From Isoetes taiwanensis (Eukaryota > Streptophyta > Lycopodiopsida > Isoetales > Isoetaceae), in the NCBI GenBank assembly GCA_021234155.1, contig JAJEKV010000034.1, forward strand, positions 7,114,028-7,178,027: a stretch of 64,000 bases of DNA, given 5' to 3'. The position numbers and the translations under genes were made by a program. The first letter of the stretch is position 1; the number at the start of each line of letters is the position of its first letter. A model generated the notes under the pieces. The model saw only the letters and a list, made by a program, of their open reading frames with translations, was not told the origin of the DNA and did not search any database. This document shows positions 2,491 through 53,303 of this stretch, one piece after another.

Positions 2491-2715
2491 GTGAGTTTTG
2501 ATGTACACATATTGCCATTGGCTTAAATTAGGGAGAATGTGTTAAAATCTAGTGTACATGTTATCAAAATGTAAATGATATTTTTACTGTAAGGCAGTCG
2601 GTTATATGCCTTGACATCGGGGCTATTCTTTTTGTATGTGAATTGGGACAAGCATAGCAAGTTCAGATAAAGGAAGCTAAAGGCAGCATATCGAAAAAAC
2701 TTACATATGTATATA

Positions 2716-2745
2716 ACCATCATTCATTTAAATTGGATTTATGTC
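2716..2745 (+). repeat. Left terminal inverted repeat
   Basis: A 30-base sequence identical to the reverse complement of 14109-14138. The next bases (TGTTCCAAAAGCACG) differ from the right end but are shared with the left end of the 51.5-kb element, so the left subterminal region is conserved within the family. Confidence 0.88.
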
Positions 2746-3602
2746 TGTTCCAAAAGCACGCCACTTTTGCATACCCTTTTATCAATATAGTGTTTTGTTG
2801 TGTGACATGCTGTTTTGCATTGTTGCAAATTTTTGCATTGTAGTAGTGGGTGGTTTAACATTTTCTTGTTTTAGTAAGAAGAATGTGGTGTTTCAATAGC
2901 ATTTGTAGATAACAACACATCAATATACACAGAACACTTTTTACATTGTATTCACTTGATATGAAGATTACATCATGGAGGGACTAGTCCTTTCTTTGTC
3001 AAATAACTCTCCAGATAGGGATCCATCTCCTTAGTCCGATCTAGTTCTGGATGCATTTTCACAACATCTGATACTGTTTTACCAGAAGCCAAGCCACTCA
3101 TGATGGACATGAATAGTACTAGAAACTCATCTGTTGAGTAATCTTGTGGAGTATAAGTTGGTGGATTTAGAGCCTGACCTTGATTATAAAAGCACTTAAG
3201 AGCATCATCATCTACTATTATGATGTCCTCTTTCTTTTGAATGCCAAGCTGATCCATCATAGTACCAAGATGTTTCACGAAGACCGGTTTGCCATCTGGA
3301 TCTCTTGGATTATACACTTACTTTGGTCCCAAATCGTCACAAAGTCTCGATTCATGCCTGGTAACACCCTAAGTACTTCATCAACATTTCTGCGTTCCAT
3401 CGAGGACCAGATGGCAACTCGAAACAATCTGAACGCCTCATTCATCATATCTTCTAAGTGTGGACGAGGATAGATCCACTTAGTATTCGATTCTAGAGGG
3501 ACTTGCTCGAAGTCATCCCTGTTAATAAGCTTCTTAGGAAACGTTTTACACAGGACACCATTCAGATCGAAGACAATGATTTTGTCACAAGCAGGTGGAG
3601 GC

Positions 3603-3711
3603 CTGAACCATGGAAAACAAAGAGTTAGCCATGCAAAAGTGTTCTGCAATACACGCCAAGCGCGTTTTATGCTTCATAAATAAGCTACATATCGCGCCTG
3701 GCGTGAATTAC
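3603..3711 (-). other. 109-nt intron carrying an inverted pair of motif A
   Basis: In the minus-strand sense the intron begins GTAATTCACGCCAGGCGCG. Further in, near 3650-3675, it has ACGCGCTTGGCGTGTATTGC, and it ends TTCAG. The two motif copies are inverted, so the intron RNA could fold into a hairpin beginning five bases after the 5' splice site. The splice keeps the reading frame of the exons on both sides. Confidence 0.7.
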
Positions 3712-5774
3712 CTTTCATCATCGCCGTCATCCACGTCTAGACTCCCCGGATGCTTACTGTCAGAAGCATGAACGCCACCGTTAAGTTCGGACACGTTCTC
3801 TTCTATGAAAGCTACCACAGGGGGTTTGATTCCTAACCTCAGTGGTTGCATCTGAGCTTGCATGATCATCCTGGCTGGTATCAGGAACTGCCGCAGTCGT
3901 ACCCCCAAGCTGGACATTACCAGTTGGAATGTTATCAAGCATGGACGCCAAATTTTTCTCCATGGTCTCACGTTCCAGCGCTAGCATTTCGGCCTTTACC
4001 TCGGGGGTTGCATTGCTTTTTAAACATTCTGGAGTTGCACTCGTAGGCTTTTGTGAACTAGTATTCTGCTTCTGCCCTTCGTAAGGTACCAAAGCCAACG
4101 GTTTTTTATCTTTGACAGGACCCCAATCAGCCGTGGCTAGTACCTTTTCGAAAAACACTTCAAGGAAATCCCTGGACTGGTCATCGTTGACGAAACTCAA
4201 ACACCTTCTTGATGTCTTCAGGACCTCTCTACCAATATACCCTCCAACATGCAATTCACAGCAAGTGGTATCAAGTGGTGCAAATGCCTCAACAAGATAG
4301 CTTGCCAGATTGATTGCAAACCCATGTTTATTCAAGGGTCCCTTTTCTTTTGTCAGCAATTCCAGAGTGATGTCTTTCCGGTAGAGGTTAGGAACATCAA
4401 ATTCCTCGCATTCATTTGCTTCATCCTCATCATCTGCTTTGTAGAAAACATTTTTCAAGTTGGGTTCATCCAAAAGAAAACACTGCCATGCACCTTTATC
4501 CGATGCCCCTTTGCTCTTAGCTACCTCATAGTCGTCATCTGGCACAAGGGATATCATTATGAAGATTATACAAGCGCTTTTTATCTTTGATCCTCAAATC
4601 AGTATCCTTTGTCTCAAAGAGAAGAGAGCCTTCCCTAACGATCTTTAGGCATTCCAAGTCGTATGAAGCCACCAAAGCATGCATATGAGGCTCTCCTGGG
4701 GGGCATATGATAACAATAGTAAAGAGCTTCTGAGTTGTTAAGCCTATGCAGCTACTAAAAAAACTGCTGTACTCCTGTTGAGTCATCCCCTTCTCTCCTT
4801 TTGCAGTCCTGCTATCCAATACAAACAGAGAAATATTACGAGGGCCTATTGTTGTATCGGATAGGAGACCTTTATAGCCAGTAGAGACCAGGTATTGGAG
4901 TGCAGGTAAGTCACCACCAAATCTTTCAGGACGACAACCTTTCTTCTCAGCTCAGCCATCACCTTATCAGATAGCTTTGAGGTGTGCTGTTGGTTCTTTG
5001 ATTTCCTGTTTTGCAGAAATTCCTTCGACCAAAAGACGTATTTCTTGATGTCATCAGCAGACACGCCATACTTGTCTAGCAGGCCAACTTCAGACAATGT
5101 TACATCACCAGATAGCTTCTGAAGTTCTTCACCAACTGCTACCTTCATAACTCGCATGTTCTTTATATGAGTGCAACAATCAATGAAGGACATTTTGTCC
5201 TTAACTGAAGAACCCTTCTTGTACAGAACTTCTTTGTTTATGCATTGATTTAACAACCAAATGATTTCATCATCTTGAAGGCCCTGTACTTTCCTCATCT
5301 CGGTAGTCTTGAGATCAAATATTGAAGTATCTTGAGGAGGCACTCGTCCCATTTGGTCTGGTAGCTGTTTCTGAGCATAAGCATCCCAGAACTCGTTCCA
5401 CTTCGCCCAGACTTCGTCCTTAGCGAAGGCGATCTTGTAGGCATCTGTGGGACCTCTGGAAACTGCTTCAGACGTCTCGCCTGCTTCCTCCCCAGTTTTT
5501 TTTCCTGTTTTTTTGGCCCTTGGTTTCCTATCTTGGATGATAGTCTGAGCCAAAAGTCTTTTCCAATGCCTTAAACTCCTCAGACTTCGTTCCTCCCTGT
5601 TTTGTTTGCAGGGGTCTTCCATATTCTATCCATTGCTGGCGGGCATGACGGAGTTGTTCCACGTAAGGGCTGCACATGTAAGGAAAGCATGTCAGCCAAT
5701 ATGAGCAGGGCATACAAAAATTAACCGCTTTTAAGATCAAGCAAAAAGGATAATCAGGAAACGTCAAAGGCAGC

Positions 5775-6066
5775 CGTGCCAATTCGCGCCTGGCGTGAAA
5801 TCATGCTGACAATTCGCGCGTGGCGTGAATTCATGCTGCCAATTCACGCCTGGCGTGTATTCGTCCGCGAATTGTCAGCATGAATACACGCCACGCGCGA
5901 ATTGCCAATGTATTGCATTTTGATCAGGCGGTGCGTTGGCAATTCGCGCGTGGCGTTTATTCATGCTGACAATTCGCGGACGAATACACGCCCGGCGCGA
6001 ATTGGCAGCATGAATACACGCCAGGCCCGAATTGGCAACGCACTGCATTCGCGCCTGGCGTTGCCA
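5775..6066. repeat. Motif A palindrome array inside an intron
   Basis: At least eight copies of a partly palindromic motif, consensus close to AATTCGCGCCTGGCGTGAAT, occur in both orientations, often separated by CATGCTG. Positions 5862-5911 and 5937-5987 are inverted 50-bp arms, so the array can form a long hairpin. It lies between the ParB-like exon (ends about 6093) and the next exon (starts about 5669), both on the minus strand. Confidence 0.85.
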
Positions 6067-7299
6067 CATAATATATCTGACTCTATTCCACCAAATATAC
6101 TAATCTTTTATAAAGAAAGACTTCGCCCATTTCGTTCAATGTTGCACTAATCTCTGCCAGGTCCTCTGCAGGGGTATGGGGGCTTAGAAACCGACACCTC
6201 CTGTGGTTGTAATGTAGCAGATACATTGTTTGTCCGGTTTGCTTAGCCTGGTTGGATAGGGATCGTTGTGCCTCAATAGAATGCTGTCCGTCAATAATAA
6301 GGAAGCATACATTAGGGTTCTCCACTGTTAGCTCTTCTAGTGTTGTCCACTGGAGTGGAGCATCCTTTTTCTTATCCCAAGGAAGCACGTCAGCTGGCAT
6401 AGGAACTTGGCCTGGATTCCTCACCATCGCCCTCAATATTTCTCTTGCATGCTCAGGATCATACCTCCTGCTAACAAGACTTGACTTATGTGATCTCACC
6501 AGACGGTCAACATGGATGGGATGTGTAAAAGATTGGCCAAGTGGGTAGTTGTCTACATACTTGACTAGCCTACTCATTGCCTCCAGCTGCAATTTCTTTT
6601 CGGAGTCATTTTCTGCCAAAATGCCATCAATCAAGGTGCGTGAGGGATGTCCTTTCTTAAGTCCAAAGAATCTTCGTGACATCCCCGATATCATTTTGAT
6701 GCTTCATATCCTCCGTAGTAACTTGGAGAAGGTCCTCGCAAAGCTCTCCTCACCGCATGACACACCCCTTCACTAATAGAAACCGGAGTGAGGACAATGA
6801 TTTTGAGGCCATCCAGATTTGAAACATGACTCAAAGACTCATGTCCTTCTTCATCGCACCATCTTTGAAAGCAGTTGCCCCGCATGTGTAAACGGACGAG
6901 ATCTTTCTTGTGGTTCTTCACAACCTCCACTAGGAGTTGACAACATATGTCATCCTCGCTCCTCACAAGTGATAAGAATACCTTGTTTCTTCATAAGATC
7001 GGTCTCTTTCTTTTCCGGAGTGTAACACAAGATCCACCTTACCATTTGTTTTGCCTACATCAACATACCACTCCACTTGTCATCCATCTTCTCCTCGGGG
7101 CATGGAGGATCTCGGTAATACCCTTTCGATAATGGATCCGCTATCATCCATCGACAATGCATAGGATATCTGCGTCCTCATTGGCGTTCCCTTCTTCATG
7201 AGCTGGAGCTCATTTGGAGTATCTTCCGAGCCTCTTGCTTTCTTAGGAGGAGGTGTAGGAGCTACCAATCGGTTTTGTCTCTTCTTCCCTGCAAACGGA

Positions 7300-7322
7300 T
7301 GCAATACACGCTTAGCGCGATT
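7300..7322. repeat. Single motif A copy upstream of exon 2 of the composite gene
   Basis: The minus-strand sense reads CGCGCTAAGCGTGTATTGCA, about 12 bases before the exon-2 acceptor TTTGCAG. The same motif plus TATTGCA phrase occurs in the 3603-3711 intron. Confidence 0.65.
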
Positions 7323-7932
7323 TCGGGTGGTCATCAATTCCGGCCAGGCTAAAGCACAGAATGGCATACAGTCCCCAATTACAGACATGCACTCATAAGG
7401 CGTGCCAATTACAAAGATGCCACTGCACAACGGAAGGCAGGCCAACTAAACACGGTCATACTACTTTACAAATTATAGACAGAACAGTTAATCACGAGCA
7501 GGACAATTTAACACAGGAAGGACATTTATTATGCACATGCAAATACAAGTCACAGCAGAAAAGAGCAGCTAAAGAAATGATAGACAGGAGTGTCAGCAGC
7601 TATAGAAATTTAAGTCACTGCTACAGAAATAGTAGACAGGAGTATAGGCGGCAAATACAGTAAATACAGAGCAATAAACAATGAATGAATAACACACAGA
7701 ATGATGACAATACTGACCTTGAGCATCTTCTCTCGCGGCTCGGCCTGAGTTTGGAGCAGCACGACCTTTGGGCGGCATCTTCGCGATGATCTTGAGCCGG
7801 AGTTCCCTGGCGCCCGGAGTTCTTGAGCGCCCTGAGCAAGTCGACAATCAAAAACCAAGAAATGGAATTCAAAAACTTATATAGATTTCCATATGGCGAT
7901 TAGGTCGGCTTTCGATCGACGGGTTTCATTCG

Positions 7933-8062
7933 GATCGACTTTTCATCGACGGTCCGATAGAAGCGAGCGGTTATTAAAATTTCGCGGAGCGACTTTTAAT
8001 CGACGGTCCGATAGAAGGGAGCGGATATTTAAATTTCGCGGATCGACTTTTAATCGACGGTT
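7933..8062. repeat. 54-bp tandem repeat upstream of the composite gene start
   Basis: Units begin at 7933, 7987 and 8041 (third partial) with GA[TG]CGACTTTT[CA]ATCGACGG. They lie 155-285 bp upstream of the minus-strand ATG at 7778 and could be promoter or transposase-binding repeats; that role is inference. The plus-strand frame that runs through them has no recognisable product. Confidence 0.75.
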
Positions 8063-8908
8063 AGCAATCTTACGATTGGGCCTAATGGGACGGACGCGAT
8101 CAGACGAAAGCAAAGAAATGGCTCTAACGACCGCCATATTGTCAAATCCCATAATTAGATTTCACTCAGCGGCTAGAAAAGCAGTACAATTAACGGATAA
8201 TTTGAAAGTACCACCTAATCTTGCCGCCAGCCTTTCTTGTCATTCGAACTCGAAAGAACTTGGAAGAACAGAAGAACTCAAAAGAACTCGGAAGAATGAA
8301 GAAGAAGGCTACCGGGCGATGTCGGCGCCTTCATGTAAGTTCATCTAATCTTCCAGAACCCAAGCTCCAAATTAATCCCATGATCTTGCGACATTGAACA
8401 GCGTTGGAGAAGAATGCTACATGCTGACGACGAATTTGAAGAGGAGGGTGGGAAATTGCAAGATAGAATCAGTCGATCCGGAAGCAATCTGCCATGGAGT
8501 TCCTCTTGGAAATGATCATGTGAAGATTCTAGTAATCATTGCCATTTCAACGATTTAAGCATTACCCGTAAGGCATCCCGATGGAGACACAAATGGGTGA
8601 AAGCATCGGAACCTTTGTTGCATGGCGGTAGAATTCGCTTTAAAGAAGGTGAGTTTCATTTTCTTGAAAGACATAGAGAAAGATTGAGTGCTAATACTAA
8701 AATGCACAAGCTGATTCTGTCATATGTATGAAATTGAAACGCTTGCATGCCAGACCATTCATTCAATATTGCAAAACTATAAGGCCTGCAGACCAGAGCA
8801 TTCAGGAATTTAAAAAACACTGTATTCTTTACATGGATGGGATATTATTTAAAGAACCTGCATTCTTTACATTGTTTTAATTACATCTGTGTGTTATTCA
8901 TCTATGTG

Positions 8909-9062
8909 TCATTCATCTGTGTGTTGTTCCTCAGTAGTCTCAAATGCTGGCAAAGAAGATGGTGCAGCTATTGGGATATTACCCAAAATGGCTTCGAGGT
9001 CTGCAACTCTAATTATCAGCTTAGCATTCTCCATTTCAAGCCCCTCCAGAGCACGACACTAC
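8909..9062 (-). CDS. Last exon of a small coiled-coil protein
   Basis: The minus strand reads RALEGLEMENAKL, then IIRVADLEAILGNIP, and ends ETTEEQHTDE followed by a stop at 8909-8911. The heptad-like Leu/Ile spacing suggests a short coiled coil. An AG acceptor sits just before it near 9062. It may be the 3' exon of the acidic gene at 9958-10436, with the motif A hairpin in the intron, but the join is not proven. No family recognised. Confidence 0.45.
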
Positions 9063-9136
9063 TCATTGAATAAGCTTATGCTTGTAGCCTATGCTGGCAC
9101 ATGAGGAACTTCAGTTGAATACGTATGTTCAGTTGA

Positions 9137-9156
9137 ATACGCGCCAGGCGCGAATT
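9137..9156. repeat. Motif A copy
   Basis: The sequence GAATACGCGCCAGGCGCGAATTC is a near-perfect palindrome. It stands alone between the coiled-coil exon and the hairpin at 9305-9532. Confidence 0.7.
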
Positions 9157-9304
9157 CATAAATCTGTAAGTTAGAGAGAAAAAACAAATTAGTGATTTCG
9201 CGCCATGAGCTAATACCATTCACTTGAATTTAAATGCCATGCGTGTATCCTATGTTGTACTTTAAAGCAGTACTGTAATTTCTTCAAAAGCTGTACTGTA
9301 ATTC

Positions 9305-9532
9305 TTAATTTTGAGAGAGATGAAGTGAGATCACGCCAGGCGCGAAATATGTTTGTGCAAAATGTTTACATTGTACAGGTCCAATACACGCCTGGCGTGA
9401 ACTGCATAAAGCTAATTATCAGATGCAATTCACGCCAGCGTATTGGACCCGCTTGACAATTTAAACATTTTGCACACAAACATATTTCATACCGGGCGGA
9501 TCTCACTTCAGCTCTCTCAAATTTAAGAATGA
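9305..9532. repeat. 230-bp foldback carrying motif A
   Basis: The left arm (about 9305-9412) and right arm (about 9413-9532) are inverted copies. Both contain GAAATATGTTTGTG, GCAAAATGTTTA, GGTCCAATAC and motif A. The outermost motif copy in the right arm has decayed to CGCCCGGTATG. The block lies inside the transposon in a presumed intron or spacer. Confidence 0.75.
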
Positions 9533-9540
9533 AAGAGACG

Positions 9541-9815
9541 GAATTCAAAACAAATATTCCAAGAAATTACAGTTATGCTTTCAAGTTAGAGTTGACACTA
9601 AAGAAACATATTGCAGTCAGTAAATCCTTGTATTGCCATTGAAAATTTTTACATAAGGCCTTTTATTAGAGTTGCCAGAATTCAAAACAGCTTCTGCAGA
9701 AATTACAGTTCTGCTTTCAAGTTAGAGTAGAAACTAAAGAAACATATTACAGTCAGTAAATCCTTGTATTGCCATTGAAAAATTTTACATAAGGCCTTTT
9801 ATTAGAGTTGCCCAG
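9541..9815. repeat. 137-bp tandem duplication
   Basis: Two copies start GAATTCAAAAC at 9541 and 9678 and end in TTTTATTAGAGTTGCC. They differ by a few substitutions. Decayed echoes of GGAGATGCC[CT]AGCTC follow to about 9915. No coding content. Confidence 0.8.
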
Positions 9816-9957
9816 CTCTGTATTACAAAATTACAGAAGTTCTAGGCAGTTTAAGGAGATGCCTAGCTCCATTCATAATCCTCATTTGAGGCCTTTTTTG
9901 GAGATGCCCAGCTCGCTTTTCTGAACCAAAAATTAAATAACAAAAACAAAAAAAAAA

Positions 9958-10436
9958 TTCAGCCCTCTACCTCCTCCTCCTCCTCTTCCTCCTCCTCCTC
10001 TTCTTCCTCTGAGCTTTCATCTGCCATCTTCGTCAGGATGTCTTGGCAAAGATCTTCGCCTTCTTGAGGAGGAGAGGGCGTCCATAATCAGCTGCTTTTT
10101 TTCTTCGTCTAATTCTTCCCGCCATTCTTCATCTGCTTCCTCCATTTCTTCTTCTTTCTCAATCTCGTTCTCCATCTCCTCATCTGAATCAAGGGGAGTA
10201 TGGGGGGACTCGGGGCTGCTGGTGCTGGTGCTCAGATAATCTTTTCCCGGGCGAAGCTTGCCCTGAAGAAATAACTCCTTGCAATTATCCGGACTGTGGT
10301 GCGGAGAGCAGCCACACAATGCATCATGGGGGGGGGGAATGGATTTCTTTATCAATTTTTTTATCTGCCTCTTCGCCTCTCGGAGGCGAGTCCGGCGGGA
10401 TGGAGCGGGAAGAGGCCGGGCAGCATGGCTCACCAT
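9958..10436 (-). pseudogene. Acidic protein gene of the transposon, probably frameshifted
   Basis: The minus-strand frame starts MVSHAARPLPAPSRR at 10436. It has a basic helix (RLREAKRQIKKLIKK), a Cys/His patch (DALCGCSPHHSPDNC) and a long Glu-rich region (EEMENEIEKEEEMEEADEE), and it stops at 10017. The next frame continues as LCQDILTKMADESS and then a run of about 13 Glu before a stop near 9958, so a single-base shift has probably cut the C-terminus. No family recognised. It lies between the composite gene and the transposase-like gene inside the same TIRs. Confidence 0.5.
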
Positions 10437-10439
10437 GGT

Positions 10440-11100
10440 AAGGAAGGAAGAAAGAACGGATTGGCGCTAGAAGGAAGAAAGGATTGGCGGTTGAAAGAAT
10501 GGAGGGTTTCATGCATGCAAGGTTTCTTATAGGCGCGGTTGTAATTATGATTCCATCACATCATACAAGATTTATATCCTAACCTATAATACGAATTAGC
10601 TATCATTACTTCTATTAAATTAATTACGCCCTAAGTTATCATTAATTCTCTATAGAATTACCCACATGTCAGCTATACTTAAAACCTATGTTTTCATTAA
10701 TTTTGTATAATTACCTAGACCTCAGCTATACTTACACACAACTTTGGCCTATCTAGATTTACGACCTATACTTACCTCATTAGTACTACTAGCATACACC
10801 CTATGTTACCATTAATTTTGCAATAATTACCTACACCTAAGCTATACTTACAATCTATTTTTGGCTGCACTTACAACATATATTTGTCCATTTAATGGTT
10901 TTTTTGGTATTTCTTAAAGTTCCTTTTAATCGGTTCTCAAAATTACTTTGTCCTTTTTTCGAACTAATATTAAGACATTTAACTTTATATAGGTGAAGCG
11001 TGTGGATCCTAAAAAGGGTAAAAATGTAATACCTATCCACCCAACATGTTTCAACATTGTTACCACATGTTCTTATCACATTGTTACCCCATTGTAAACA
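10440..11100. other. AT-rich spacer without a gene
   Basis: The stretch repeats the phrases CCTA..CTTA, ACCTAAGCTATACTTAC and TTACCATTAATTTTG several times between 10570 and 10860, a diverged short tandem array. No coding content was found. Confidence 0.5.
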
Positions 11101-11109
11101 TTGTTCTTG

Positions 11110-13961
11110 TAGGTCAATGCTGTGGACCACCCAAAGGGTGTTGAGGCTGAGGCTACTAAGCAAATTATCCTCTACAATAGGTTGGATTGGAAGAATAAGA
11201 AGGTGAAACTGAAGCACCAATGCAATAAGGAGCTAGTAGGTGAAGGAACTATCATACTAGCTGATCCTATCCAGGCTGTCAATAATGAAAGGTTACGAGA
11301 GGATAAAGTGGGTGTGGCCATAACAAGTTTAGAGGAAAAATAGAAGGAAAAAGGATCAAATCACCAGGATTGCACTGCTTGTATTAAACAATTGGAGGTT
11401 CCATGCATCATGCCATAGCCTATAGCCTGCATTGAGTTTATAGGAGAATTCCTTTTACCAGAGCCAGAGGTTGTGGATGACATTGATTTTCTTAATGCAC
11501 CTCCAATAGCTGCCAGGACCACATTTTCAGAGAAGAGGGCACACTCAGTGGTGAAACATTATCCTAGCAAGAGGTCCAAGTCAAGTAGTGATTGTTCACG
11601 TGAAGCTCTGACTAAGGTAAGGGGAATGGAATGTTGTTGGGCTAATTGTGTTCAGAAGTTTGAAATTGATGAATTGGTGGAAGCAAGAGCCACCTTCCAA
11701 GAGTATACTTGTGATGAGAGGAGGACTTACATGTACTCCATTCATGAGCTTGCACTTCAAGATGAAAAATTTCCAAAGAAAAAAAAATACCCACTGCTAG
11801 GGACATGGATATGTAAAGTTGCATGGATACATATTCATGCCATTCCAATTTCGTCTTGGCAAAATTGGCAAGCAAGTCATGCAAAGGGGAGTAAAATTGC
11901 ATTACATGGAAATAATGGCATGTTGAGGCCAACTTCTAGGATCCTGGCTGCTAGGGAGGTTTTTGAAAAATATGTTGAATTCAATGCTGAGAATATGCCA
12001 CATAAAAGTAGGAAAGATCAACAGGGAAAAATAGTTGTCGATAAGAGATTGCCATCCCATTGTACCCAGAAGAGCATATTGGAGGAAGTGAATGCTTTGC
12101 TTCGAGAACTGTTGTGTACCGCAATATCTCAACCCGCCTTGAGAGACTATGGAGCAAGCACTTCAAGCATGTCACTATAGACACTTCGAACCACTTTGCA
12201 AAGTGCAACTTGTGTGCTAAGTTGAAAGAGATTCTTGATAAGACCAAGCAACCAAGCCAAAGGGCTAAGATAAGGGAGCAAATGAAAGATCACATGACAG
12301 ACCAACTATCATGTAGATCCACTTATTGGATGTGGAGAACATTATCATGTTTGGAACCCAATAACTATGTTTGTATTATCCATGACAAGATGGATCAATC
12401 AAGACTTGTTTGCCCAAAGATAGTTACATACCCAAGCAAATCAATAGAGCTTATCCTTTGCAAGTCTCTCCGACAGTGCAATAGTGCATGGCTCGGTGCC
12501 AATTTATTATGGCCATTTTAGTTTGAAATTGTGGAGTGATGGTCCTGATTTTCATATTGGAAGTGTGATGAGGTGCTTGAGGAACTATGAGAGTGGTTAT
12601 TCTGGTGACCTCCACAACCCTGGAGGTGGTAGCCAACCACTCTTCAGTGCATTGTTGGATAGAAAGCCTAATAATTTAGAGAAGTTTACTAAGGCAAGGT
12701 TTAGGAAGTCAGGTGCTTCTGAACATGTTGGAGCCTCAAGTTCACGTCCCCAACCTCGAGATCTACCACCAAGGTTCCTCCTCCAACTTAATAAAAACAG
12801 GTATATGTTCTCATTCCTATCTTATTTAACAGCCGTGGGTGTCTTTGAAAGAGTGAATTTAGGGTTCTTAATGCCTGGACATACTCATGAGGATGTGGAT
12901 GCATTGTTTGGGAAGTATAGTGCGCAGTTGAAATCTCAAACTGTGACCAATCTTCCTAGACTAATGGAAGTTCTTAGTGAATGCATTTCACCTTCTCCTA
13001 TAGGGTTGATCATACAAGAGGTGCCTGATTGGAAGAATTTTATCGAAGGTTATGCTCTTGATATGGAAGGTCAATCTAAACCTCTTCAGTACACTTTCTG
13101 GGTCATGGGAAATAAGCCAATCATGTAATGGAAGATGAGACCTTCAGATGATAAATGGAGGCCAGATGAGGGAGTACCTATATGGCACGAAGATGAAAAT
13201 GGTAAACCTAAGATTCCAAGGGGTCAACCAAAAGCTCTTAAGCCTTTTCCAGAGGTGGATTCATTGCAAAGCACATTGGACGGCATTTCTGAATACGTCA
13301 AGTATTGGAAAAATAACCCCGATGATACCAACCTTGCATTGATAGATTATTGGACACGTGTACATGGATTATTGGGACAAGTAGACACATCCTCCCGATG
13401 AACTCAAAGATGGATGGCTACCTAAGACTAGGTGGAGAGACTTGATAACACCCGAGGAAGCCGATGATGTGGTTAGTAGTATTCGCAAAGTCCATGGCTC
13501 CTCCAAACCTGCTGAAAAACACTATGTTGGTCCTAGGAAAGGAAGGCCTAAATATCTCGGCTGGAGGATTATGATCCCAAAGATGACTTGCTTTGCCATC
13601 AATTTGCACTTATAGTACCCGAGGAGCGCAAAGAGATATACCCCGTGGTGGATGGGTTACACCATCTCGAGAGGTTTGCAAAGAAGTAGGTGACCGCAAT
13701 GTGAACAAAGTTCGTGGTGGAGTGGTGGTGTCCAAAGGCACCGCTTAAATGCAAAGGGCTTGAGAGGAAGAAAGGTATAGAGACTGTTGGACAAAGAGAT
13801 GGAAGAGAAACCCTATTGAAGGGGATGATTGGGTTGAGTTAGATACTATTTTGTTTTCATGGACCCCAAAGGCCATCCCAGGCAAGACTGCTAGGGTTAC
13901 AATACCTGTGGAAGTGAGGAAGAAAGCTATGATATCTCTAGGGGTCACTTCTGAGAAGTAA
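11110..13961 (+). pseudogene. DUF7869-type transposase-like gene
   Basis: The family is common in seed-free plants and other eukaryotes and is probably an RNase H-like transposase; that role is inference. In order: a divergent N-terminus (11110-11650), VCK-like and Gly-rich region (GTWICKVAWIHIH, HGNNGMLRP), MPHKSRKD, the FKHVTI..FAKCNLC region (12150-12220), CIIHDKMDQSRL holding the first conserved Asp (12370-12410), HGSVPIYYGHFSLK (12487), LPPRFLLQLNKNRY, where the usual LDN Asp/Asn step is deleted, and PGHTHEDVDALFG (12875-12915). The C-terminal part has RPSDDKWRPDEG and RKGRPKYLG. Frame breaks occur near 12115, 12475 and 13385, with an in-frame TAA at 13126-13128. The tail ends SLGVTSEK, stop at 13959-13961, 150 bp before the right TIR. 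Confidence 0.8.
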
Positions 13962-14108
13962 TTGGCAATATGTAACTCGACATGCATATGTGAAGTATTT
14001 TTAATTTTTAATGCAATCATGTTGTGCTGTTATAAAAAAAAGTCACATTCTCGATGCAAATTTACTAACCCGGGAAAAAGTTGCAGTGCCAAAATGGTCC
14101 AAAATCCT

Positions 14109-14138
14109 GACATAAATCCAATTTAAATGAATGATGGT
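14109..14138 (-). repeat. Right terminal inverted repeat
   Basis: The reverse complement equals 2716-2745 over 30 bases. It lies about 150 bases after the stop codon of the DUF7869-type gene. Confidence 0.88.
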
Positions 14139-14149
14139 TATATTGTTTG

Positions 14150-51507: not shown

Positions 51508-53303
51508 TAGAAAACTATCATTCATTTAAATTGGGATTATGTCTGTTCCAAAAGCGCGTCAGTTTGGCCCTATACAAGCCAAATATTGTTGTTTTTACAT
51601 TAAACCAATTCATCAAAAATCTCACTCAAAAACACTTGTTGACTAGTCTAATTCAAATTATGCCATAAAAAGGAGACTTATTCATGCATTATTGAAATAT
51701 TTTTCTGAGGTAGAATAATGGAGAATGGCTATTGTTTTTCATGTTTTAATCTTCTAATATAATTCATAGGACATGAAAATAGCGTCAATATACATTAAAT
51801 GTATATTTAGCAACATTAAAAGTTAACCCAATATCCAGTGTTTGAAGACAGAATCAAGACAAACACAATACACCTTATAGTTGACATTCAACATAATCAT
51901 TCAAAAATACACTCTCGTTAACTTCCAAAGAGCCTACAAACAACAAAAAAAATGAGGTATATAAACATGTTGACTTGGCTTATAAAAACATATATAACGT
52001 AAAATCATGCTTTATGGTTTACACGCTTTAAACTTCAGAACATGAAAATGCGCTTGGCGCGATTTAGCTTGGATGATGAAGGTCCAAAAGTTTAAGTTTC
52101 ATACTAAATACTAATCCATCTTTCGTCCTCTTCTTTGAGAATGATAAGAGCCCAGGCATATAACGAAACATCTATCCCCTTCAGCAGCATGGCTCTGTAA
52201 CTGAGTTAGTTAGAACTGAGTACACGATCAGAACTCAGTTAGTTTTGCAAACAAATTGTAAGCAAAATAGAGCAAGAACCACATGATCTGTGTTGCTACA
52301 AGCCTTTGGAAACAAATATAATGTCATCGGACCAAGAATTGGGGTCTCGGCTAAATCTTCTGCCAAATAACTACAAATCCCAAGCAATCCCCTCTGTGTA
52401 GTGTGCTTTCCAGATATTCATAGAAGCTTACTAAAAGCTTACTGTTTCAGCTCATATCGTTCCTTTTGCTTCTGTATCATCTCCAAATTGAATCATATAA
52501 GATCTCAACGAACTGAAGAACACATTTCCACAAACCTGGTACATAAACTCTGATTCGGAATTGAAGGCAAATTAATAGATCATCATAATTGAAATAGAGA
52601 GATTTAAACTTGATGGTAATAATACCTGCAAATATGGCAGTCCCTCTATCTCTTGCATGCCCTAGTCATTTAAAATATGATCCTGCAGAAAACACATCCA
52701 TTGCAAGAGAACCTAAGGCAAACCATACTCACTATATCCTGAATGGCTGCATCCAAGAAATTGTAGAAAGAGCACACTGAGCTCATCTAGCCAGGATGGG
52801 CATGTCTACAAAGAATGGGCAGAAAAATAGGCACGTTTATGAAGAAGGTCAGAACAGGTCTTTCTATGAAGAACGAAATGGGAAAAATGCCGGAATAGGT
52901 TTGTCCATGAAGAAAGGGCAGAGAAATATATGGGAAGGAAAGTCAGAATGGCAAAAAGGTTGGAATAGACCTGGCTATGAAGAAAGTTCAGAGAAAAGAA
53001 AGCTGGAATGGGAAAAAAGTCGGAATAGGTCTGGCTATGAAGAAAACGCAGAGAAATATATGGCAAAGAGAGCCAAAATAGGCGTGCGTCCAAAAAAAAT
53101 GCAATGGGGAAAAGGGTGAATGGAAAGTGCCGAAAAAACGTGAGGAAGAAAAGCGGGAGAAAGTCTAGACAAGCGGGAAATTTTAGATGGAAGAAATTTT
53201 AGACGGGTGGGGGAAATTTTAGGCGGGCGGGCGGGAAATGAAAGATATTTTAAATTCCCAATATTATGACATAATCTAAATATAAATGAATGACGGTTAG
53301 AAA
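51508..53303. mobile_element. 1.8 kb non-autonomous relative of the 11.4 kb transposon
   Basis: The element runs from 51514 to 53297. The ends ACTATCATTCATTTAAATTG (left) and ACCGTCATTCATTTATATTT (right, complement) agree in 25 of 30 positions with each other and match the 2716 TIR. TAGAAA occurs immediately outside both ends (51508-51513 and 53298-53303), a perfect 6-bp target duplication. The left subterminal TGTCTGTTCCAAAAGC is shared with 2742-2757. A motif A copy (GCGCTTGGCGCGATTT) lies at 52050. No transposase is encoded. Confidence 0.88.
52796..53119. repeat. Imperfect tandem repeat, about 60-bp units
   Basis: GGAATAG[GA][TC]CTGGCTATGA and AGAAAG..CAGAGAAA recur five to six times. The open frame (TKNGQKNRHVYEEG and so on) follows from the repeat unit and is not evidence of a protein. 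It lies inside the 1.8 kb element. Confidence 0.75.

What the first reader, a model, noticed from the sequence alone, without database searches (positions are those of the whole stretch)
2973..7778. Transposon gene combining ParB/DGQHR-like, possible methyltransferase-like and FCP1-phosphatase domains
Exons on the minus strand, joined by splice sites that keep the frame where tested (exon 1-2 and linker-HAD), give one protein with a DGQHS-type ParB-like domain and an FCP1/NIF HAD domain. Between them is a segment with LHVGGYIGREVL..RRCLS, which resembles the SAM-binding strand of beta-class DNA methyltransferases (known: DPFCGSGTT..A...RR.IG). ParB-like plus DNA methylase fusions are known in phages and bacteria; I know of no such plant transposon gene with an FCP1 domain added. 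The methyltransferase part is the weakest step.
Basis: partly seen in the sequence, partly recalled or inferred. Interest (0 to 1): 0.88.

Follow-up and report, generated by a model that had tools for sequence, protein, structure and literature searches.

The report
Plant transposon gene with palindrome arrays
A large cut-and-paste transposon of a plant, probably the quillwort Isoetes, carries beside its transposase a second gene that joins a bacterial-type ParB-like domain to an FCP1-type phosphatase domain, and the introns of that gene hold arrays of one short palindrome that may be where the protein binds the element itself.

Summary
The gene is real. It belongs to a large repeat family (150 places scored of 4,102 candidates) in a 1.66 Gb genome, probably Isoetes taiwanensis. 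It is the accessory gene of an 11.4 kb DNA transposon (2715-14139) with matching terminal repeats, a 4-bp target duplication and a DUF7869 transposase on the opposite strand. Of 20 copies read, 17 keep the order ParB-like, middle, MT-like, FCP1; one is open for 1,021 residues across intron 2. FCP1/NIF is certain, with DLN where DxD is expected. ParB-like is moderately supported. The methyltransferase reading has no profile support and lacks DPPY. The window copy is broken. ParB-methyltransferase accessory proteins of algal transposons are in print, so this is a new variant. New here: a land plant, the FCP1 domain, and arrays of AAWTCACGCCWGGCGTGAWTT: 96 sites in 13.7 kb of intron 2, 1 in 46 kb of exons 2-3. 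I propose that the protein binds these arrays and tunes its own element's transcription; that is inferred.

The parts
2715..14139 (.). whole transposon, ATAT on both sides (4-bp target site duplication)
   Evidence: 31-bp terminal inverted repeats AACCATCATTCATTTAAATTGGATTTATGTC, 0 mismatches at both ends; flanks
2715..2745 (+). terminal inverted repeat, left
   Evidence: the same end found in 16 of 20 fetched copies with 0-5 mismatches
14109..14139 (-). terminal inverted repeat, right
7718..7778 (-). exon 1, MPPKGRAAPNSGRAAREDAQ
   Evidence: start and donor seen in 9 of 20 other copies, all of the window's subfamily
6105..7288 (-). exon 2: basic N-terminus, N-terminal domain, ParB-like domain with IIDGQHSIEAQ (frame broken in this copy)
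   Evidence: boundaries read by eye
3712..5669 (-). exon 3: middle domain, MT-like domain, linker (frame broken in this copy)
   Evidence: boundaries read by eye
4090..4918 (-). MT-like region: LFVLDSR at the motif IV place, ELHVGGYIG at the motif I place
2973..3602 (-). exon 4: FCP1/NIF HAD domain, FDLNGVL ... WSSMERRN ... VDDDALKC (frame broken in this copy)
   Evidence: PF03031 E 8.8e-10 (38.9 bits, cut-off 21.8) and 1.2e-3 (18.9 bits); PDB profile UBLCP1 E 0.0026
5670..6104 (-). intron 2 with the main palindrome array (core sites from 5785 to 6062)
3603..3711 (-). intron 3 with palindrome cores at 3652 and 3693
9138..9403 (.). three further palindromes between the two genes (core starts 9140, 9332, 9387)
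11419..13615 (+). transposase gene pieces (DUF7869, GHTHEDVDALFGKYS), head to head with the accessory gene
   Evidence: PF25273 E 1.7e-27; also upstream on the opposite strand in L042 and L044
51513..53298 (.). short element with related ends and AGAA/AGAA 4-bp target duplication
   Evidence: ends with 3 and 6 mismatches

Best explanation
This is the accessory gene of a Sola-like cut-and-paste transposon of a lycophyte. From the exon lengths it encodes a protein of roughly 1,270 residues: basic N-terminus, N-terminal domain, ParB/DGQHR-like domain, a middle region, a region that looks like a catalytically dead beta-class methyltransferase, a linker and an FCP1-type HAD domain. Most likely the protein is nuclear, and its ParB-like part recognises the element's own palindromes, which lie in tandem arrays in its introns and between the two genes. 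The FCP1 domain then acts on, or merely docks to, the phosphorylated tail of RNA polymerase II, so that the element controls its own transcription or escapes silencing. Shown: the element, the gene order, the conserved splice join, signs of constraint on the protein, and the palindrome arrays. Inferred: nuclear location, that the protein binds the arrays, and that the FCP1 part works on polymerase II.
For: Order kept in 17 of 20 copies from subfamilies about 55% alike. L040 open through 1,021 residues over the intron. Between subfamilies protein divergence is modest while synonymous sites are saturated, in the N-terminal, ParB-like, middle, MT-like and NIF regions. Head-to-head transposase in the window, L042 and L044. 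Palindrome core with at most 2 mismatches, 18 copies: 96 in 13,660 bp of intron 2, 25 in 5,501 bp of intron 3, 1 in 19,577 bp of exon 2, 0 in 26,385 bp of exon 3. In the window 12 of 12 lie in the element, with 0 in 20 simulated sequences; a longer pattern gave 10 against 0.17 expected. In L040 the sites are 87% alike and the spacers 25%. PF03031.
Against: No binding data. The ParB-like assignment stays below curated cut-offs, and at least one of 59 shuffles beat its profile-profile score. Both AlphaFold models, made without an alignment, are uninformative (pLDDT 34.8 and 32.5). The FCP1 motif has N at the second acidic position, so phosphatase activity is doubtful. Some arrays grew by duplication (spacers 75% alike in L031). 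Sites were picked by likeness to the core, so their mutual identity is partly by construction. L021 and L034 have no site in intron 2, and L032-L035 none at up to 1 mismatch anywhere in the stretch. One site of L037 (7954 in gene orientation) lies about 1 kb beyond that copy's terminal repeat. No copy among the 20 is open through exons 2-4.
Confidence: 0.45

Rival explanations
1. The MT-like region is an active N4-cytosine or N6-adenine methyltransferase and the protein marks its own transposon DNA, as suggested for the algal ParB-methyltransferase accessory proteins.
For: The published Ectocarpus arrangement is alike: opposite strand to a Sola1 transposase, 1,104 aa, ParB-like plus methyltransferase (PMC12477816, passages). 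The best ungapped place of a beta-class motif I block along the 1,021-residue query is the LHVGGYIG segment, first of all positions.
Against: No N6_N4_Mtase hit in 7 of 7 members at E<=2, no PDB hit, profile-profile score 13.4 against a shuffle mean of 13.6. In the block test 230 of 300 shuffled blocks scored at least as high somewhere.
Confidence: 0.12
2. The palindromes have nothing to do with this protein: they are hairpin-forming or CG/CCWGG-context repeats that spread in introns, and the protein is a transposition or transcription cofactor with another target.
For: Some arrays expanded by duplication. Introns tolerate repeats, exons do not. In the window the array forms a large inverted repeat (102-bp arms). 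One site of L037 lies outside the element.
Against: In L037-L040 sites are 83-87% alike while the spacers are 25-41% alike, and a 32-bp step recurs in several copies; the sites were, however, picked by likeness to the core.
Confidence: 0.3
3. A passenger gene: a captured fusion carried along by the transposon without function for it.
For: Most copies looked at are broken, the window copy included.
Against: The gene is shared by subfamilies only about 55% alike, with synonymous sites saturated and the protein conserved, and stays beside the transposase in two subfamilies.
Confidence: 0.08

Closest known systems
ParB-methyltransferase accessory proteins of algal DNA transposons (Sola1-1_Ec32 of Ectocarpus; green and red algal cases cited there)
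   Same: Large DNA transposon, accessory gene on the strand opposite the transposase, protein of over 1,000 aa, ParB-like domain and a methyltransferase-like region (PMC12477816, passages).
   Different: Here a land plant, an added C-terminal FCP1/NIF domain, no methyltransferase catalytic motif, and palindrome arrays in the introns. No algal sequence was on hand, so homology of the two proteins is not tested.
DndB / DGQHR proteins (ParB superfamily, DNA phosphorothioation systems)
   Same: Best relevant Pfam match of the ParB-like region, over the stretch with the DGQHS motif (5 of 11 members, best E 0.0027); DndB is placed in the ParB superfamily (PMC10853773, passages).
   Different: Below the gathering score; eukaryotic transposon.
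Phage ParB_N + N6_N4_Mtase fusions (e.g. Streptococcus phage Javan113)
   Same: Order ParB-like then methyltransferase.
   Different: The phage proteins keep DPPY and a GSGS-type motif I; the plant protein has neither and is about three times as long.
FCP1/SCP/UBLCP1 polymerase II CTD phosphatases (PF03031)
   Same: Clear NIF domain; best solved sequence UBLCP1.
   Different: DLN in place of DxD; joined behind ParB-like and MT-like regions in a transposon gene.
TET/JBP-carrying DNA transposons of fungi
   Same: Transposons that carry a gene acting on epigenetic marks, thought to help them escape silencing (PMC12730594, abstract and outline).
   Different: Different enzymes and transposon lineages.

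Membership tests
Sola superfamily of DNA transposons | AT-rich 4-bp target site duplication | tested here: met
   ATAT/ATAT and AGAA/AGAA around two elements of the window; 4-bp AT-rich duplications are stated for Sola2 (PMC3627910, passages). Two cases only
Sola superfamily of DNA transposons | Sola-type transposase | not testable with these tools
   the transposase is Pfam DUF7869 (1.7e-27); no Sola1 transposase sequence was on hand
ParB/DGQHR superfamily | profile match above the curated cut-off | tested here: not met
   DndB 5 of 11 members, best E 0.0027; the one row printed has 12.9 bits against a cut-off of 29.1; DGQHR 1 of 11, E 0.09
ParB/DGQHR superfamily | conserved DGQH/GxHR-type motif at the expected place | tested here: met
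   29 of 31 ungapped rows read DGQHS or DGHHS; hhalign lays it on the phage GGHQR
ParB/DGQHR superfamily | ParB/Srx fold | tested here: inconclusive
   single-sequence model, pLDDT 34.8
beta-class N4/N6 DNA methyltransferase (PF01555) | motif IV (D/N/S)PP(Y/F/W) | tested here: not met
beta-class N4/N6 DNA methyltransferase (PF01555) | profile or profile-profile match | tested here: not met
beta-class N4/N6 DNA methyltransferase (PF01555) | SAM-binding fold | tested here: inconclusive
   single-sequence model, pLDDT 32.5
FCP1/NIF phosphatase (PF03031) | profile match above the gathering score | tested here: met
   38.9 bits, cut-off 21.8
FCP1/NIF phosphatase (PF03031) | catalytic DxDx(T/V) (motif recalled) | tested here: not met
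   DLN(G/V/D)V in 6 of 6 aligned copies: first Asp kept, second acidic position Asn

The most novel reading that the evidence does not exclude
A eukaryotic transposon has its own ParB/parS-like system: a ParB-like protein that loads on arrays of up to about ten 21-bp palindromes, often one every three helical turns, in the introns of its own gene, and uses an FCP1-derived domain to act on RNA polymerase II, a self-recognition device by which the element senses its own copies and sets their expression.
Probability: 0.2. Interest if true: 0.9.

Novelty: new variant of a known kind. Interest (0 to 1): 0.6.

Why it matters
In what I could read, ParB plus methyltransferase accessory proteins of transposons appear as a short mention in algae, with the suggestion that they bind and modify their own element but no target site named. 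If the intronic palindrome arrays are the target, that idea becomes directly testable. An added FCP1 domain together with lost methyltransferase motifs would show a self-marking protein turning into a transcription regulator in a land plant.

Tried and rejected
Methyltransferase as a working enzyme: rejected as best reading, see the membership test. Viral relatives: the search for related loci with the exon 2 alignment in viral contigs gave 32 pattern matches and no relative; the exon 3 alignment was not conserved enough to scan. Homologues in the 5.8-billion protein set: none at E<=0.01 among 7,994 scored for the spliced L040 protein; one for the NIF exon, a 143-aa piece 57% identical on an 800-base contig. 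PDB profile searches with exon 2 and exon 3 gave nothing meaningful. PHROGs gave nothing below E 0.08. Whole-genome counts of the terminal repeat and of the palindrome array could not be made because the genome search did not complete; that the arrays are special to this family is therefore shown in the window only, and a site of L037 outside its element speaks against a strict rule. Notebook corrections: entry 2 says 19 of 20 copies keep the order, but one search gives 17 of 20 when FCP1 is required; it also says 1,022 aa, the protein is 1,021.
Full report
Setting. The window is G000:C1039:7114028-7178027 of a genome of 1,658,258,908 bases in 1,110 contigs. The Isoetes taiwanensis assembly is 1,658.30 Mb in 204 scaffolds plus 909 contigs (PMC8566536, passages), so the host is probably this lycophyte; this rests on size and contig number alone.

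The gene. A search of the own genome with the ParB-like piece scored 150 of 4,102 candidates; all 150 matched (the window itself among them), from 100% to 54% identity, so the number is a lower bound, and some places may be parts of one copy. I fetched 20 of these 150, picked for open frames and for both subfamilies. In 17 of 20 the order ParB-like, middle, MT-like, linker, FCP1 is kept; L028 has the ParB-like exon only, L029 lacks FCP1 in the stretch, L038 lacks MT-like and FCP1. At the intron 2 donor 16 of 20 junctions displayed read GT; the window, L022, L029 and L033 read AT, and L030 was not displayed. Most acceptors displayed read AG before a CC-type start of exon 3; L034 and L035 read CGG. 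In L040 the join keeps the frame and gives 1,021 residues without a stop. The NIF exon is open through both halves in L022, L024, L025, L026, L027 and L033, 6 of 20, but L040's own NIF exon is damaged, and none of the 20 is open through exons 2, 3 and 4. Exon 1 with MPPKG and a GT donor is seen in the window and in 9 of 20 other copies, all of the window's subfamily; it was not found in the other subfamily. Exon borders of the window copy were read by eye.

Constraint. Codons under tblastn alignments were compared in 13 pairs for four regions and 8 pairs for NIF. Between subfamilies the synonymous estimate is saturated, while dN is 0.27-0.45 in the ParB-like, MT-like and NIF regions for pairs with few frame breaks (for example L040-L025, L040-L033, L031-L025; L026 or L033 against the others for NIF). 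The N-terminal region gives 0.26-0.53 and the middle 0.27-0.49 in such pairs. Higher values, up to 1.18, come from pairs with broken exons. Where the ratio could be computed it runs from 0.05 to 0.63 (MT-like 0.37-0.55, NIF one pair 0.54). The method picks codons by protein similarity, so it leans towards constraint.

The element. The terminal repeat AACCATCATTCATTTAAATTGGATTTATGTC stands at 2715-2745 and, inverted, at 14109-14139, without mismatch; ATAT flanks both sides. A second, shorter element at 51513-53298 has related ends and AGAA on both sides. The plus-strand gene at 11419-13615 matches DUF7869 (PF25273, 1.7e-27). Of four upstream stretches read, L042 (window's subfamily; 85% on one piece, only the first two of five pieces found) and L044 (other subfamily, 46-56%) hold the transposase on the strand opposite the accessory gene; L043 and L045 show none. 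A 4-bp AT-rich duplication fits Sola elements (PMC3627910, passages on Sola2); Physcomitrella Sola1 is listed in a review of land plants (PMC9033089, passages). Whether DUF7869 is the Sola1 transposase I could not test.

Domains. FCP1/NIF: PF03031 8.8e-10, above its cut-off; PDB profile best UBLCP1, 0.0026. The first catalytic Asp is kept, the second acidic position is Asn in 6 of 6 aligned copies. ParB-like: DndB in 5 of 11 members, best E 0.0027; in the same call unrelated models (DUF6742, SPT8 propeller, gp37 trimer) reach 3-5 members with best E 0.012-0.024, so the lead of DndB is modest. DGQHR models match 1 of 11 each, no ParB hit in PDB. Profile-profile against phage ParB-methyltransferase fusions: score 22.5, probability 4%, with DGQHS laid on the phage GGHQR; the reversed profile scored 12.9 and 59 shuffles gave mean 13.0 and maximum 25.3. 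29 of 31 ungapped rows read DGQHS or DGHHS. The single-sequence model is uninformative. MT-like: no N6_N4_Mtase in Pfam, nothing in PDB, profile-profile at the level of shuffles. A motif I block has its best ungapped place at the LHVGGYIG segment, ahead of all other positions, yet 230 of 300 shuffled blocks did as well somewhere; a motif IV block does not point to LFVLDSR, its best place lies in the ParB-like region. The DPPY place reads LDSR in 14 of 19 rows listed. The single-sequence model is uninformative. I take it as a degenerate methyltransferase at best, mainly because published algal proteins have the same order.

Palindromes. The core CACGCCNGGCGTG with at most 2 mismatches occurs 12 times in the window, all 12 in the element, and 0 times in 20 simulated sequences of the element's length; a longer pattern gave 10 against 0.17 expected. 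In 18 copies (the window and 17 loci; L028, L033 and L040 were skipped by the script) it occurs 96 times in 13,660 bp between exon 2 and exon 3, 25 times in 5,501 bp between exon 3 and exon 4, once in 19,577 bp of exon 2, never in 26,385 bp of exon 3, 6 times in 10,240 bp called exon 4 (whose query began upstream of the acceptor, so these may be intronic; not checked), and 10 times in 21,600 bp upstream. L021 and L034 have none in intron 2; L028 and L032-L035 have none at up to 1 mismatch. Some sites lie elsewhere: six of L040 in the far upstream stretch (406-1985) and one of L037 about 1 kb beyond its terminal repeat. From 100 sites with at most 1 mismatch the extended pattern is AAWTCACGCCWGGCGTGAWTT. 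Spacing is commonly 30-42 bp and often 32, with some wide gaps. Within eight arrays sites are 76-90% alike, partly by construction; spacers are 25% alike in L040, 26% in the window, 28% in L022, 32% in L036, 41% in L037-L039 and 75% in L031, which plainly grew by duplication.

What it most likely does. Bound to its own palindromes through the ParB-like part, the protein would sit inside the transcribed element and bring an FCP1-type domain to the polymerase. This would let the element tune or shield its own expression. The binding and the polymerase step are inferences.

Prior work. [quoted passage not shown] those two are not held. For a plant or FCP1 version, one search found 0 papers with its six terms; in the listings (12 of 52; 15 of 36; 8 of 837; 6 of 44) I saw no title or abstract start describing one. 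DUF7869 is in none of the library's papers. Most subscription papers are not in that library.

Noticed in passing
51513-53298: A 1.8 kb element with diverged copies of the same terminal repeats and an AGAA 4-bp target duplication; no palindrome core inside at up to 2 mismatches.
   Followed up: partly
5777-6060: The palindromes of intron 2 lie in a large inverted repeat (102-bp arms, 93% complementary) that could fold as a hairpin in the transcript.
   Followed up: no
7931-8061: Tandem 54-bp units in the upstream region of the accessory gene.
   Followed up: no
9562-9812: Two 115-bp direct repeats, 96% identical, between the two genes, plus several inverted repeats at 9259-9722; possibly a nested insertion.
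   Followed up: no
10017-10466: Minus-strand open frame of 149 aa with a Glu-rich stretch between the two transposon genes; no Pfam match.
   Followed up: partly
L037, position 7954 in gene orientation: A palindrome core about 1 kb beyond the terminal repeat of this copy; its own context was not looked at.
   Followed up: no
   Followed up: partly
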